64,000 bases of DNA, taken from contig NZ_QRBF01000001.1 in NCBI RefSeq assembly GCF_003363265.1, positions 1,024,451 through 1,088,450 on the forward strand. The letters run 5' to 3'. Source of the DNA: Dyella psychrodurans (GTDB lineage Bacteria > Pseudomonadota > Gammaproteobacteria > Xanthomonadales > Rhodanobacteraceae). The translations under genes and the position numbers were made by a program. Positions 22,791-57,526 of the stretch are shown piece after piece; position 1 is the first letter of the stretch; every line of letters starts with the position of its first letter. Below the pieces are notes generated by a model. It did not search any database and had not been told where the DNA came from. It saw nothing but the letters and a program-made list of their open reading frames with translations.

Positions 22791-23085
22791 CTAGGGACAC
22801 TCTGATCAATTCTTCGTAGGCGGCATGATGTCCAGAAGGCCCGCAGGCTGTGTTGCACGGCGCCGGGAAGACTGGCCGTCTTGCCAAGCCGTGCGGCGCA
22901 GCCTGCGGGCCTTCTGGACATCACCCCATCACTTAAATTCAGCACGTTGGGGCCAGTCCTGTCTGTCCGCATGCCTTCGGCCCGCCGTCTCGACAGACGG
23001 CCAGTCTGCCTTCGCCGACGGCCCTACGGCTTGCGAACAGACAGGACTGGTGACGCCTACGAAGAATTGATCAGAGCGTCCCTAG
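22791..23085 (+). repeat. structured repeat family, copy A (four-helix junction)
   Basis: 295 bases between the DUF2059 gene and uvrA. The ends (22791-22822 and 23054-23085) are inverted repeats matching at 31 of 32 positions (helix P1). Inside: P2, arms 22826-22861 and 22888-22923, 36 continuous pairs including three U-G; P3, CCCC (22924-22927) with GGGG (22949-22952); P4, 22953-22966 with 23037-23050 (14 perfect pairs), topped by GCCGTC/GACGGC and CAGAC/GTCTG stems. Copies B and C share the fold with different helix sequences. Short frames across it on both strands are by-products of the repeat. It begins 68 bases from the DUF2059 start and ends 113 bases before uvrA. Confidence 0.88.
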
Positions 23086-23198: not shown

Positions 23199-26090
23199 AT
23201 GGACACCATCCGCATCCGGGGCGCCCGCACGCACAATCTCAAGAACATCGACCTGGACCTGCCTCGCGATCGTCTGATCGTGATTACCGGTCTGTCGGGT
23301 TCGGGCAAGTCGTCGCTGGCGTTCGACACCATCTACGCCGAAGGGCAGCGTCGTTACGTCGAGTCGCTATCCTCCTACGCGCGGCAATTCCTCTCGATGA
23401 TGGAGAAGCCGGACGTCGACCATATCGAAGGTCTGTCGCCCGCCATCTCGATCGAGCAGAAATCCACCTCGCACAACCCTCGTTCCACGGTGGGCACGAT
23501 CACCGAGGTATACGACTACCTGCGTCTGCTCTATGCCCGCGTGGGCACGCCCCGCTGCCCCGACCACGGCATTCCGCTGGAGGCGCAGACGGTCAGCCAG
23601 ATGGTCGACACCACGTTGGCCCTGAACCCCGAAAAACGTTTCATGCTGCTGGCGCCGGTGATCCGCGAACGCAAGGGCGAGCATGTGCAGGTGTTCGAGC
23701 AGTTGCGCGCGCAGGGTTTCGTGCGTGCGCGCGTCGATGGCGCGGTGTACGACCTCGATGCGGTGCCGCCGCTGACCTTGCGTCAAAAGCATACGATCGA
23801 AGCGGTCATCGACCGATTCCGTCCGCGCGACGACATCAAGCAGCGGTTGGCCGAATCGTTCGAAACGGCACTCCGGCTGGGCGATGGCCTGGTGATCGTG
23901 GTGGACATGGACGATCCCAAGGCCAGCGAGCAGCTCTACTCGTCGCGCTACTCCTGCCCGGTGTGCGATTACTCGCTGCCCGAACTCGAGCCGCGCCTGT
24001 TCTCGTTCAATTCGCCGGTCGGCGCCTGCCCGGCCTGCGATGGCCTGGGCGTGACCCAGGTGTTTTCGCCGGAGCGCGTCGTCAGCCATCCGGAACTGTC
24101 GCTCGCCAGCGGTGCCGTGCGCGGCTGGGACCGTCGCAACGCGCATTATTTCCAGCTGATCCTGTCGCTGGCGAACCATTACGGTTTCGATGTCGATACG
24201 CCGTGGGAGAAGCTGTCCAAGACGGTGCAACAAGCGGTGATGTACGGCAGCGGCAAGGAAAAGATAGCGTTCCGCTATCTCACCGAACGCGGCGGCAAGG
24301 TGACGCGCGAGCATGCCTTCGAAGGCATCCTGCCGAACCTGGAACGGCGCTACAAAGAAACCGAATCCCCGGCGGTGCGCGAGGAACTGGCGAAGTACAT
24401 CAGCGATCATCCCTGCCCCGATTGCGGTGGCCAGCGTTTGAACCGCTCGGCGCGCAACGTATTCGTCGCCGATCACGCGCTGCCTGTGCTTACGGCACGT
24501 TCCATCGACGATGCACTCGCGTTCTTCGACACGCTGAAGCTGTCCGGTTGGCGCGGCGAAATCGCGGTGAAGATCGTCAAGGAAATTCGCGAGCGTCTGA
24601 GCTTCCTCAACGATGTCGGCTTGAATTACCTCACGCTCGATCGCCAGGCCGATACGCTGTCCGGCGGCGAAGCGCAGCGCATCCGCCTCGCCTCGCAGAT
24701 CGGCGCGGGCCTGGTCGGCGTGATGTATGTGCTGGACGAGCCTTCCATCGGCCTGCATCAGCGCGACAACGAACGACTGCTCGGAACGCTCACGCGTCTG
24801 CGCGATCTCGGCAACACGGTGATCGTGGTCGAACACGACGAAGATGCGATTCGCGCGGCCGATCACGTCCTGGACATCGGCCCCGGCGCCGGCGTTCACG
24901 GAGGCGAGATCGTGGCGCAGGGCACGCTGAAAGACATCCTTTCCTCGTCGCGTTCGCTGACCGGCCAATACCTGTCCGGCAAACGCGAGATCAAGGTTCC
25001 CACGGAACGCCGCGAACAGCTCGACAAGGATTCGTGGCTTTATCTCAAGGGCGCGAACGGCAACAACCTCAAGCATGTGGATCTGGCCGTTCCTGCAGGC
25101 TTGTTCACGTGCGTCACCGGTGTTTCGGGCTCGGGCAAATCCACCCTGATCAACGATACGCTGTTTGCTCTCGCAGCCGCCGAGTTGAACGGCTCGACGA
25201 CGCAAGCGGCACCGTACAAATCCGTCGAAGGACTCGAACTGTTCGACAAGGTTGTCGATATCGACCAATCCCCGATCGGTCGCACGCCGCGTTCGAATCC
25301 CGCCACCTACACGGGCTTGTTCACGCCGCTGCGCGAACTGTTTGCCCAGGTGCCCGAAGCGCGTTCGCGCGGCTACACGCCGGGACGTTTCAGCTTCAAC
25401 GTTCGCGGCGGACGTTGCGAAGCCTGCGAAGGCGACGGCATGATCAAGGTGGAAATGCACTTCCTGCCGGACGTGTACGTGCCCTGCGACGTCTGCCACG
25501 GCAAGCGCTACAACCGCGAGACGCTGGAGATTCTCTACAAGGGACACACCATCGCGGACGTGCTCGGCATGACGGTGGAGGATGCCTCCAAGTTGTTCGA
25601 GAACGTACCCGTCATCGCGCGCAAGCTCGATACATTGCGCGCGGTCGGTCTCGATTACATCAAGCTCGGACAAAGCGCGACCACACTTTCGGGCGGCGAA
25701 GCGCAGCGCGTGAAACTTTCCAAGGAGTTGTCCAAGCGCGACACCGGCCGCACGCTCTACATCCTCGACGAACCCACCACCGGCCTGCACTTCCACGACA
25801 TCGAGCAGCTGCTCGACGTGCTGCACCAGCTGGTCGACCAGGGCAATACCGTGGTGGTGATCGAACACAATCTCGACGTCATCAAGACGGCCGACTGGAT
25901 CGTCGATCTCGGTCCGGAAGGCGGCGCCGGTGGCGGACGGATTCTGGTCACCGGTACGCCGGAAACCGTGGCGGCGACGTCGGGTTCGCACACCGGCCGC
26001 TTCCTGGCTCCGCATCTGAAGCCAGCCAAGACGGCGCGCACCAATATCGAGAACGGTAAAGTCAAGGCCAAACGCAAAGTAGCTTCATGA
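23199..26090 (+). CDS. uvrA: excinuclease ABC subunit A
   Basis: 963 residues, full length. Two ABC ATPase modules: Walker [10 protein letters not shown] near residue 31 and GVSGSGKST near 643, each with LSGGEAQR signatures. Zinc modules CPVCDY...CPAC and CEACEG...CDVC are intact. UvrA finds bulky DNA damage with UvrB in nucleotide excision repair. The stop overlaps the next start (ATGA). The gene is preceded by structured repeat copy A and a dyad. Confidence 0.98.
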
Positions 26091-46836: not shown

Positions 46837-46882
46837 CCCAGCATGTTACTTGCGGGCCCGCTGGACGGGCAAGTAAGCTGGG
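46837..46882. promoter_or_regulatory. long hairpin between dapA and gcvR
   Basis: CCCAGC plus TTACTTGC pairs with GCAAGTAA plus GCTGGG (14 bp, 3-base bulge, ~15-base loop). It lies 24 bases before dapA and 45 before gcvR, in the shared control region. No known riboswitch is recognised. Confidence 0.5.
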
Positions 46883-46926
46883 GGTTCGCTCGTCGTCATC
46901 CCGCACGACGCGGGGTCGCACCGTCC

Positions 46927-47490
46927 ATGTCCACGAACCCTTTTTCCGCGCGATCCAGCAACGACCACCAACTGCTGATCCAGACGCTGACGCCGGCGGC
47001 GCGCACGCCGCTGCTCGCGCTGGCGAGGCGCATCGCCGACGCGGGCTGCAATCTCTCCGACGCGCGCGTGTCCACCATCGGCACGGATACCTCCCTGACC
47101 CTGCTCGCCACCGGCGCATGGGACGCTGTTGCGAAGCTCGAAACAGCATTGACCAAGCTGGCGCGCGAAGAAGAGCTGCGCCTGACGCACTACCGCACCA
47201 GTCCGCGCGAGCCCAGCGGCCACCTGCTGCCTTATCTGGTGGAAGTGGTGTCGTCGGACCGTCCCGGCATCCTGGTGAAGATCGTGGATTTCTTCAGCCG
47301 CCATGAAATCAGCGTCGAACAGTTGAGTTCGATGCGCTACCAGGCCATGCAGACGGGCGCCGCGATGTTCCAGGCGCAATTCACCATCGGGGTACCGGAC
47401 AAGCTCCACATCGCCGCGTTGCGTGACGATTTTCTCGAGTTTTGCGACGGCCTGAATCTGGACGCCATCATGGATCCGGTGAAGTTTTAG
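46927..47490 (+). CDS. gcvR: GcvR-like ACT-domain regulator
   Basis: 187 residues in two ACT domains; the second opens with YLVEVVSSDRPGILVKIVDFF and EQLSSMRYQAMQTG. In E. coli GcvR binds GcvA and glycine and represses the glycine cleavage operon. E. coli also places gcvR divergent to dapA-bamC with bcp downstream, which is preserved here. The last two bases of its TAG stop are the first two of structured repeat copy B. Confidence 0.9.
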   Translation: MSTNPFSARSSNDHQLLIQTLTPAARTPLLALARRIADAGCNLSDARVSTIGTDTSLTLLATGAWDAVAKLETALTKLAREEELRLTHYRTSPREPSGHLLPYLVEVVSSDRPGILVKIVDFFSRHEISVEQLSSMRYQAMQTGAAMFQAQFTIGVPDKLHIAALRDDFLEFCDGLNLDAIMDPVKF

Positions 47491-47759
47491 GGATGCGCTA
47501 ACCCATTTTTCGCGGGCGGCATGATGTCCAGAAGGCTCGCAGGATGTGTTGCGCGGCGCAGGGAAGACTGGCCGTCTTTTCAAGGCGCGCGGCGCAGCAT
47601 GCGAGCCTTCTGGACATCACCCTTCGGGCCAGCCCTGCCGGTCCACATCCCTTCGGTCCATCGGCTCGACAGACAGCCAGTCTGCCTTCGCCGATGCCCC
47701 TGCGGTCTGCGGACCGGCAGGGCTGGTGACGCCCGCGAAAAATGGGTTAGCGCATCCCT
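47489..47759 (+). repeat. structured repeat family, copy B
   Basis: 271 bases between gcvR and bcp. Terminal arms 47489-47518 and 47730-47759 are a perfect 30-bp inverted repeat whose sequence differs from copies A and C. P2 spans 47522-47619 with a few internal mismatches but the same U-G positions; P3 is shortened to CCC-TTC-GGG; P4 arms 47629-47644 and 47711-47726 pair at all 16 positions. The shorter P3 loop explains most of the length difference. The remaining ~107 bases to bcp hold no gene. Confidence 0.87.
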
Positions 47760-47866
47760 GAGGATGCTCCGCTCAGAGTGATCTGACAAGGCTGTTTTCC
47801 ACCGCCCGACACGCGCTAGTCTCCGTTCCAGCAAGCGCAGAACTCAGTCAGGCTTCCGGAGAACTC

Positions 47867-55519: not shown

Positions 55520-55807
55520 AGGGTGCGCTGAACCATTCTACGCAGGCGGCATGATGTCCAGAAGGCTCGCAGGGTGTGTTGCGTGGCGCAGGGAAAGCCG
55601 GGCGCCTTTTCAAGCCGCGCGGCACGCCCTGCGAGCCTTCTGGACATCACCCCTTCATTAAAATTTGAGCGGTGGGGCCGGCTCTGTCCGTTCGCATCCC
55701 TTCGGCCCATCGTCTCAACAGACAGCCAGTCTGCCTTCGCCGATGGTCCTGTGGTCTGCGAACGGACAGAGTCGGTGACGCCTGCGTAGAATGGTTCAGC
55801 GCACCCT
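55520..55807 (+). repeat. structured repeat family, copy C
   Basis: 288 bases between grxC (minus) and bepA (plus). Terminal arms 55520-55548 and 55779-55807 are perfect over 29 bases but unlike copies A and B. P2 spans 55552-55649 with one long helix containing several U-G pairs; P3 CCCC/GGGG; P4 arms 55678-55696 and 55757-55775 pair at 18 of 19 plus one G-U. It ends 18 bases before the bepA start, so it must lie in that gene's leader or promoter. Apart from it, the 403-base gap holds no gene. Confidence 0.87.
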
Positions 55808-55825
55808 AAGTATTGTCGTTCATCT

Positions 55826-57526
55826 ATGACCATGGCACCACGACATCTACGTAAACGCTTGCTGACCGCGCTGGTCCTGGGCGGCCTGACCCTGACCGCA
55901 GGCGCCCAGGACAAGCCCGACGACGTGCGCCTGCCCGACCTCGGCAGCTCGGCCAATGCGCTGATTTCGCCCCAGGAGGCGCAGGACTACGGCGCCATGA
56001 TGCTGCAGCAGATGCGCGCCATGGACATGACCGTCAACGACCCGCTGCTGGACGATTACATCAACAACCTGGGCTTCCGCCTGGTCGCGAACTCGGCCAA
56101 GCCGAAGGACCACTTCGCGTTCTTTATCGCCAAGGATCCGGTGATCAATGCGTTCTCCGCACCCGGCGGTTACATCGGCATCGACTCCGGGCTGATCGTC
56201 ATCACGCGTACGGAAGATGAACTGGCCGCCGTGATGGCGCACGAAATCGGCCATATCACCCAGAATCACCTGCAGCGCGCCTACGAACAGGCGAAGAAAG
56301 ACACGCCGCTGATGGCGCTCGTCGCATTGGGCGCCATCGCCGCTGGCGGCGCGGCGGGCGGCCAGGCCGCCGCCGCCGCCCTGCTGGGCGGCCAGGGCGC
56401 CCTGATGCAGAAGGAAATCAACTTCACCCGCAAAGACGAAGCGGAAGCCGATCGGACCGGCATCATGACGCTCGCCAAGGCGGGCTTCGATCCGAATGCG
56501 ATGGCGGAATTCTTCCAGCGCATGGAAGACGTGATGAGTGCCGACTCCGGCGGCATCAATGTTCCTTCGCTGCTCGAGGATCACCCCGTCACCGCCCAGC
56601 GCATCAGCGACGCGAAGGCTCGCGCCACCTCGCTGATCGCGGAAGAGAAGCAGAAACCCAGCGGCAACCTGCTCGACAAGTCCACGTGGGCTCAGAAGAC
56701 CGCGCCCATCGCCTACGTGAAGGATCCCACCACGCTGCTCGCTGCCAATAACAGCGATCCATCCCCCAGCACTTATCTGCTGATGCGCGAGCGCGTGCGC
56801 GTGCTTTCCGACGACGCCTATCGCATGAGCACGTTCTACGGCTCGTTGATCGGTCAAAAACCCGGCTACGACACCCCGGAAAATCGCTACGGCTACGCGC
56901 TGGCGCTGACTCGCACCGGCCAGGGCGCCAAGGCCATCGCCGAATTGCAGCCGGTGCTGACGAAATATCCGGACAACCTGGTACTGCGGCTGGCCATGGC
57001 CGATGCCCGCCTGCAGGCAGGCGAGCGCGCCGCAGCGTTGGATATCTACGCTGCGTTGAATACCCAATCGCCTCGCAACAAGGCGATCGGGCTGGCTTAC
57101 GCCAATGCCCTCACCCAAGGGGGCACCGCCAAACAGGCCGCCCAGGCAGCCGACATGCTGCGCCCGATGCTGGACAACACCGACGAGCCGGAGATCTTCA
57201 CGGCTTACGCCCACGCGAGCGAGAAAGCCGGCGACACCGTCCGTGCCGGCGAGGCCTATGCCCAGGCCAGCTACCTGTCCGGGCGCCCCTTCGATGCCAT
57301 GGAACAGCTCAAGACCCTGCTCAAGCGTCCGGACCTCGATTACTACGCCCGCGCCCGTATCCAGGCCCATATCTCCGAGCTCACCCCGCTGGTGATGGAG
57401 CTGCGCAAACGGCGCGTCGCCACGGACGACAACCCCGACGGAACCAGCCAGACCCCGCAGCAACTGAGCTCCAACGCGGCATGCGCCGGTAAGCTTTGTT
57501 TCAGCCTAGGTAACGGTCGCCCCTGA
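55826..57526 (+). CDS. bepA: BepA-like M48 metalloprotease with TPR
   Basis: 566 residues. Signal peptide (to about residue 27), M48 zinc protease domain with HEIGH (His139, Glu140, His143) and a downstream acidic ligand in KDEAEADR, then C-terminal TPR units (about 330-500). BepA degrades or helps mature outer-membrane proteins such as LptD in the periplasm. A hydrophobic Ala/Gly-rich segment (about 165-195) follows the active site. ATG 55826 is 18 bases after structured repeat C; ATG 55832 is an alternative. Confidence 0.92.
   Translation: MTMAPRHLRKRLLTALVLGGLTLTAGAQDKPDDVRLPDLGSSANALISPQEAQDYGAMMLQQMRAMDMTVNDPLLDDYINNLGFRLVANSAKPKDHFAFFIAKDPVINAFSAPGGYIGIDSGLIVITRTEDELAAVMAHEIGHITQNHLQRAYEQAKKDTPLMALVALGAIAAGGAAGGQAAAAALLGGQGALMQKEINFTRKDEAEADRTGIMTLAKAGFDPNAMAEFFQRMEDVMSADSGGINVPSLLEDHPVTAQRISDAKARATSLIAEEKQKPSGNLLDKSTWAQKTAPIAYVKDPTTLLAANNSDPSPSTYLLMRERVRVLSDDAYRMSTFYGSLIGQKPGYDTPENRYGYALALTRTGQGAKAIAELQPVLTKYPDNLVLRLAMADARLQAGERAAALDIYAALNTQSPRNKAIGLAYANALTQGGTAKQAAQAADMLRPMLDNTDEPEIFTAYAHASEKAGDTVRAGEAYAQASYLSGRPFDAMEQLKTLLKRPDLDYYARARIQAHISELTPLVMELRKRRVATDDNPDGTSQTPQQLSSNAACAGKLCFSLGNGRP

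What the first reader, a model, noticed from the sequence alone, without database searches (positions are those of the whole stretch)
22791..23085. Family of three ~280-bp elements with conserved four-helix fold and covarying arms (copies A, B, C)
Copies at 22791-23085, 47489-47759 and 55520-55807 share the order of helices and a few fixed words (GATGTCCAGAAGG, CAGAC-GCCA-type loop, GGTGACGCC) but the paired arms differ. Example: P4 left arms CCAGTCCTGTCTGT, CCAGCCCTGCCGGTCC and CCGGCTCTGTCCGTTC each have their own complementary right arm. Terminal arms of 29-32 bases likewise differ between copies but match within each. Changes on one side matched by changes on the other are the mark of selection for base pairing, not just of descent from one copied palindrome. 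All three lie in the same orientation, in non-coding gaps. The function is inferred, the pairing is seen.
Basis: partly seen in the sequence, partly recalled or inferred. Interest (0 to 1): 0.78.

Follow-up and report, generated by a model that had tools for sequence, protein, structure and literature searches.

The report
Jumping DNA with conserved paired hairpins
The three look-alike elements are copies of a small jumping DNA that carries no enzyme of its own, and the same hairpin core turns up in many other proteobacteria inside elements with quite different ends.

Summary
The three copies are real, fold as described and covary. They are insertions: the sites are empty in most Dyella relatives, with one YTAR target (CTAG-like) where copy A carries two. 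They are MITE-like. Their arms match the transposase end of IS5-family elements (22 of 22 bases in one congener), and the own genome keeps a truncated IS5 relative with a similar end.

The outer arms (P1, P4) do not covary as RNA should: reconstructed double Watson-Crick changes outnumber single ones, A·C is as common as G·T, and arm lengths mostly change together. Copying of one arm onto the other fits better, but among the closest copies single changes lead, so it is not proven. Upper P2 behaves like a folded single strand (G·T 105, A·C 14).

A model of P2 finds a second family of nine elements in this genome and matches 52 of 369 genomes of the class and 29 of 398 of the phylum. Terminal repeats differ between types, yet 50 of 60 loci keep one layout: ~32-nt arm, ~98-nt hairpin, ~105 nt, matching arm. 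In 16 of 48 loci the second hairpin is an inverted copy of the first. No relevant Rfam match; my literature searches found no description. The core's function is unknown.

The parts
22795..23081 (+). Copy A, whole element, flanked by CTAG 22791-22794 and CTAG 23082-23085 (4-bp target duplication)
   Evidence: empty site with a single CTAG in 7 of 7 congeners aligned
22795..22822 (+). Copy A P1 left arm (terminal inverted repeat)
23054..23081 (+). Copy A P1 right arm
22826..22923 (+). Copy A P2 hairpin carrying the conserved core
   Evidence: R1 model hit 111.5 bits
22924..22952 (+). Copy A P3: CCCC / spacer / GGGG
22953..23050 (-). Copy A P4 hairpin; on the minus strand it matches the P2 model
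   Evidence: R1 hit 48.7 bits on minus strand
47491..47757 (+). Copy B, short-P3 form (CCC-TTCG-GGG at 47620-47628); flanks TTAG 47487-47490 and CTGA 47758-47761 (read as a decayed CTAG duplication; the left one holds the stop codon of the upstream gene)
47522..47619 (+). Copy B P2 hairpin
   Evidence: R1 hit 111.2 bits
47629..47726 (-). Copy B P4 hairpin
   Evidence: R1 hit 41.8 bits on minus strand
55521..55806 (+). Copy C; CTAA 55517-55520 on the left, CTAA again at 55806-55809 only if the last C is counted with the right flank (in the alignment the flanks are CTAA and TAAG)
55552..55649 (+). Copy C P2 hairpin
   Evidence: R1 hit 105.6 bits
55678..55775 (+). Copy C P4 hairpin (not matched by R1 on the minus strand at E<=0.001)
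23199..26090 (+). uvrA-like gene 117 bp downstream of the end of copy A (name from recall of the sequence, not from a family search)
   Evidence: ORF
46843..47490 (+). Gene upstream of copy B (gcvR-like by recall), whose TAG stop lies in the left target copy
   Evidence: ORF
55826..57526 (+). Gene downstream of copy C (BepA-like M48 peptidase by recall)
   Evidence: ORF

Best explanation
These are non-autonomous insertion elements (MITE-like). SHOWN: they insert into YTAR-like sites with a 4-bp duplication, and their ends match those of IS5-family elements in the same genus. INFERRED: an IS5-family transposase moves them in trans. Between the ends lies a fixed layout: P1 arm, P2 hairpin, small P3 hairpin, P4 hairpin (an inverted relative of P2), P1 arm, so each strand presents the same order of helices. 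INFERRED: the P1 and P4 arms stay complementary mainly because replication template switching (or repair of a folded strand) copies one arm onto the other, so that any change, including an end acquired from a resident IS, becomes two-sided. The upper stems of P2 and P4 hold conserved words and, each on its own strand, tolerate G·U but not A·C. INFERRED: these are the functional cargo and act as a folded single strand, more likely RNA in read-through transcripts than ssDNA. Having the hairpin in both orientations gives a sense copy whichever way the element is transcribed. SHOWN: the core recurs in elements with unrelated terminal repeats.
For: Flanking 4-mers identical in 35 of 121 copies, against a shuffle mean of 9.8 and maximum of 22 in 2000 shuffles. 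Site A: no element hit above 60 bits in 15 of 15 congener loci; 7 of the 15 aligned, 7 of 7 with one CTAG. Site C: 14 of 14 congener loci without a hit (none found for G013). Site B: element also in G006, a partial minus-strand hit elsewhere in the G005 locus, no hit in the other 13. IS5 transposases (NF033581: 279, 309 and 147 bits, cut-off 140) lie beside the same end words; copy L114 equals an IS end in G003 over 22 of 22 bases. P1: 240 double WC changes, 40 to GU, 46 to AC; upper P2: GU 105, AC 14, p=2e-18, and 98 to 13 without the pairs that are usually T·G; upper P4: 19 to 54, p=5e-5. Arm lengths mirrored in 14 of 18 departures from the mode, 120 of 123 copies measured. Layout kept in 50 of 60 loci of other types, 45 under tighter limits. 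P2 model finds P4 on the opposite strand in 16 of 48 loci. Control of 133 kb without known elements: best E 0.34.
Against: Among copies 94-97% identical, single changes outnumber doubles (P1 13 to 5, P4 9 to 3); at 91-94% doubles lead in P1 (31 to 17) but not in P4 (14 to 19). So pairing is often restored with a lag, which selection could also do, and the doubles partly reflect long branches. In the cross-type alignment the lower P2 stem also favours G·U (19 to 3 A·C), unlike the 13 to 12 within the Dyella type. G001, G006, G008 and G011 have no DDE_Tnp_1 match although three of them hold many copies; the G003 IS copies carry a stop in the matched frame. For other terminal-repeat types no partner with matching ends was found in 12 genomes (10 matches in 6 of them). 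86 of 121 copies have non-identical flanking 4-mers, read here as decay. Three of four same-site pairs are not each other's nearest relatives. The arm-length variants fall largely into two subfamilies. No transcript data.
Confidence: 0.68

Rival explanations
1. A selected structured RNA (or RNA-like element) spread by mobility: pair-by-pair compensatory selection keeps all four helices.
For: 20 of 20 significant pairs lie in the structure; upper P2 shows G·U far above A·C; P2 covaries across types, 32 of 39 pairs changed on both sides, and its lower stem there favours G·U 19 to 3; among the closest copies singles come before doubles.
Against: Within the Dyella type P1, P4 and lower P2 show no G·U preference (40:46, 29:45, 13:12). 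Column pair 20-280 has all four WC types and no mismatch in 121 copies. Some copies have several wobble pairs converted together.
Confidence: 0.22
2. Purely neutral palindromic MITEs: homogenisation explains all pairing and the core has no function; conservation reflects recent common descent.
For: Mirrored arm changes; palindromisation of P2 in L072, L107, L067; deletion derivatives exist with P1 only or P1+P4.
Against: Across types the lower P2 stem and P1 turn over while the core words persist, in many families of the phylum. The wobble bias of upper P2 is not in the unpaired mutation spectrum (188 against 216).
Confidence: 0.13
3. REPIN/RAYT-like system: inverted hairpin pairs moved as single-stranded DNA by a HUH (tyrosine) transposase, with IS5-like ends coincidental.
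For: Inverted pair of hairpins in high copy; resembles the REPIN abstract.
Against: 4-bp YTAR target duplication and long terminal repeats matching DDE transposase ends. RAYT genes were not searched for.
Confidence: 0.05

Closest known systems
IS5-family-derived MITEs (general bacterial MITEs; review PMC10969869, passages read)
   Same: Under 500 bp, terminal inverted repeats, target duplication, no transposase gene, related IS in the genus
   Different: A fixed four-helix layout with a conserved inverted hairpin pair kept across unrelated terminal repeats and across a phylum; the review passages I read describe stem-loop transcripts but no such shared core
REPINs (PMC3116915, abstract and outline read)
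   Same: Two hairpin units in inverted orientation form one replicating unit
   Different: REPINs are tied to REP-associated tyrosine transposases (abstract); here there are long TIRs, YTAR duplication and ~98-nt hairpins
NEMIS/Correia, CIR and other structured repeats (PMC2229807, passages read)
   Same: Folded transcripts; NEMIS RNA is proposed to be cut by RNase III; CIR has two arms and a linker
   Different: Larger, many TIR types, far wider spread; CIR lacks a closing 5'-3' stem according to that paper. Sequences were not compared
Template-switch maintenance of hairpins (PMC8794818, abstract and start of introduction read)
   Same: Multibase compensatory changes arising in one event
   Different: That paper concerns RNA genes; here it is proposed for a mobile element's terminal repeats

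Membership tests
MITE | Short element with terminal inverted repeats | tested here: met
   267-287 bp in the window, P1 arms 28 nt
MITE | Target-site duplication and empty orthologous sites | tested here: met
   exact duplication in 35 of 121 copies
MITE | No own transposase | tested here: met
   No ORF at or above the listing limits (90 aa at A and B, 75 aa at C) lies wholly within a copy
MITE | Autonomous relative with the same ends | tested here: met
   IS5-family elements in G003 and G005, remnant in G000; of these only the G005 copy has an uninterrupted frame of about full length (307 aa). Not found for other TIR types
MITE | Mobilised in trans | not testable with these tools
   Needs an experiment
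IS5 family (ends and target) | YTAR 4-bp duplication (rule recalled) | tested here: met
   CTAG and TTAA are the commonest flanks
Rfam family | Match to any of 4227 models | tested here: not met
   Window: only two tRNAs at gathering. L002, L330, L311 and L308 at E<=1: four matches, all in L002 and below cut-off: two microRNA families over P2 and Leu_leader twice in a flank
REPIN/RAYT | REP-associated tyrosine transposase | not tested
   No search made
Selected structured RNA | Covariation beyond phylogeny | tested here: met
   (own null model)
Selected structured RNA | G·U favoured over A·C in helices | tested here: inconclusive
   Dyella type: met in upper P2 only, reversed in upper P4, absent in P1, P4 and lower P2. 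Across types met in lower P2 as well (19 to 3)
Selected structured RNA | Transcribed | not testable with these tools
   No RNA data

The most novel reading that the evidence does not exclude
A phylum-wide superfamily of non-autonomous elements is defined not by its ends but by a conserved inverted pair of ~98-nt hairpins around a four-way junction of fixed geometry. It changes terminal repeats, and so transposase, while keeping the core, helped by arm-to-arm copying that makes a new end two-sided. The core is a strand-symmetric functional RNA or ssDNA module that gives the element its persistence.
Probability: 0.4. Interest if true: 0.85.

Novelty: new variant of a known kind. Interest (0 to 1): 0.68.

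Why it matters
It offers many natural replicates for a general question: when do paired changes in a stem mean selection, and when do they mean that one arm was copied from the other? The G·U against A·C contrast inside one element helps to separate the two. If the core is conserved while the ends change, small elements may be able to switch transposases, which would alter how MITE families are defined and traced.

Tried and rejected
Phage and plasmid relatives of the Dyella type: none. Other types: one short match on an Azotobacter plasmid, none in phages (one query). Rfam: nothing relevant. The G003 word TTAAGGCAACGCTGA was first suspected to mark the ends of a second IS. Of 16 stretches fetched, 13 showed one terminus and 3 were shortened copies; apart from 74 nt shared by two, no common element appeared. 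Integron attC was considered and dropped because the hairpin foot lacks its boxes (from recall, no search). Terminator role: no T-run noticed beside P2 or P4, not scanned. Papers: searches gave no description of this element family (listings only, open-access library); one search gave template-switch papers; passages on MITEs of Thiomargarita were read and judged unlike (PMC4853749).

Rows dropped: of 124 full copies, L001 (same as window A) and L078, L079 (over 355 nt) were left out, giving 121. For one search, 18 of 78 loci of other types were left out (match near a contig end, repeats of G019, or odd context). Of the 60 used, 10 did not fit the layout (L299, L301, L319, L345, L350, L355, L356, L366, L370, L371). 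In one search, 3 of 123 copies were not measured. R2 was built from 31 hand-picked hairpins, so E-values for those sources are circular; hits in genomes not in the model are not. Class and phylum scans scored only 10 or 11 candidates a genome, so copy numbers are lower bounds; both counts include the own genome.

Full report
WHAT IS THERE. Copies A, B and C are as reported. Seen as insertions they run 22795-23081, 47491-47757 and 55521-55806, each with 28-nt P1 arms, a ~98-nt P2 hairpin, a small P3 (a CCC-TTCG-GGG hairpin in B) and a ~98-nt P4 hairpin. A DNA search of the own genome gives ten near-full copies in both orientations, four pieces at contig ends and two degenerate ones. In a panel of 61 genomes 24 match, all in the same family f1; none of the 24 genomes of other families does. 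Named loci with an exact 21-mer of P2 are mostly Dyella, with Rhodanobacter, Frateuria and some MAGs (37 stretches).

INSERTION. In 121 distinct copies the 4-mers next to the ends are identical in 35, against 9.8 expected, and CTAG and TTAA lead. At site A, 15 of 15 congener loci show no element hit above 60 bits. In the 7 that I aligned the sequence runs through a single CTAG where the window has two. Site C shows no hit in 14 of 14 congener loci. At site B the element is also present in G006. Of 13 further loci aligned, 8 run straight through TTCTAG and 5 carry other changes there. In B the target holds the stop codon of the upstream gene.

PARTNER. The only DDE_Tnp_1 match in the own genome lies in a truncated IS5-family copy whose end reads CTAAGGATGCTCTGATC. 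G003 and G005 hold IS5 elements with such ends; transposase frames from G003, G005 and the own genome pass the NF033581 cut-off. The transposase-side end of two G003 copies is identical to the arm of copy L114 over 22 bases. The G003 copies carry a stop in the matched frame; the G005 frame is open over 307 aa. Several congeners with many copies have no DDE_Tnp_1 match, so the partner may have been lost there or differ.

WHY THE ARMS MATCH. The consensus fold is supported: 20 of 20 significant pairs lie in it under a tree-based null. The kind of change differs by helix. In P1 reconstructed changes are 240 doubles, 40 to G·U, 46 to A·C and 22 to other mismatches; in P4 81, 29, 45 and 18; in upper P2 65, 105, 14 and 46; in upper P4 59, 19, 54 and 52. 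Leaving out the pairs that are usually T·G, upper P2 still gives 98 to 13. Unpaired sites show no matching strand bias: 188 changes of the G·U-making types against 216 of the A·C-making types.

Distance matters. Counting disjoint pairs of copies, at 94-97% identity P1 has 5 doubles and 13 singles and P4 3 and 9; at 91-94% P1 has 31 and 17, P4 14 and 19; from 88-91% downwards doubles lead in both. Restoration therefore often lags the first change. That singles are as often A·C as G·U in P1 still speaks against RNA pairing as the filter there.

Arm lengths mostly change together: (35,40) in 102 copies, (34,39) in 9, (36,41) in 5; four other combinations once each, two of which look like motif-finding failures that I did not check. 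Copies L072, L107 and L067 have the normally wobbling part of P2 converted to perfect pairing. Ten of 119 copies have all three wobble positions Watson-Crick where 3.7 are expected from the margins, without correction for kinship. This looks like arm-to-arm copying; template switching is known to do this (PMC8794818). Same-site pairs between species (4 found) show P1+P4 changes of 23 doubles, 3 G·U, 6 A·C and 2 other mismatches, but three of the four pairs are not nearest relatives, so descent in place is uncertain. The site-B pair, which is close to nearest, has mirrored loss of one base in both P1 arms.

WIDER FAMILY. A model of P2 finds 41 hits in the own genome, many of them the two strands or P4 of one copy. 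Among them are nine elements of a second family with ends like AGAGCCTGTTCATGATC. In seven copies of the first family the model also hits P4 on the opposite strand. G019 and G051 carry further types, and G036 mostly the second one. Model R2 from 31 diverse hairpins has 32 of 39 pairs changed on both sides. It matches 52 of 369 genomes of the class and 29 of 398 of the phylum at E<=1e-4, the two sets overlapping in part. DNA without known elements gives nothing below E 0.34. In 50 of 60 loci the same layout recurs with very different terminal repeats, often CTAG- or TTA-bordered. In 16 of 48 loci P4 is found by the P2 model on the opposite strand; the nine own second-family loci are not among them. 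Matching transposase ends for these other types were not found in the 12 genomes tried, six of which have no DDE_Tnp_1 match at all; other transposase families were not searched.

READING. Mobility in the Dyella type is well supported; the identity of the enzyme is likely; arm homogenisation is probable; a functional core is suggested by conservation across terminal-repeat types and by the strand-specific wobble pattern, while its task (RNA processing, transcript insulation, host-factor binding or a transposition aid) is open. My guess is a folded RNA in read-through transcripts, at about 0.4. No paper in my searches describes the family (searches listed under tried and rejected).

Noticed in passing
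L038, L039, L040, L041 (G000 C11, C10, C16, C13 contig ends): Four contigs of the own assembly end inside a copy, so the repeats or their hairpins probably broke the assembly and true copy number may be higher.
   Followed up: partly
L291, L292, L293 and solitary termini in G003: Shortened derivatives: P1 alone as a ~64-bp palindrome, ~100 bp and ~165 bp (P1+P4) forms, and many solitary TTAAGGCAACGCTGA termini.
   Followed up: partly
L005, L076, L078, L079, L108: Copies with extra inserts (323-391 nt by profile coordinates), not analysed.
   Followed up: no
window 47487-47490: The target of copy B contains the stop codon of the upstream gene; YTAR targets can contain TAG/TAA stops, so insertion there leaves the gene intact.
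   Followed up: partly
L336 (G000 C1:80576-80672): A P2-like hairpin with no similar surroundings noticed and not checked for terminal repeats; possibly a remnant or chance.
   Followed up: no
apices of P2 (TGGC) and P4 (GCCA), e.g. window 22826-23050: The two apical loops are complementary over four bases and could form a kissing pair; not tested.
   Followed up: no
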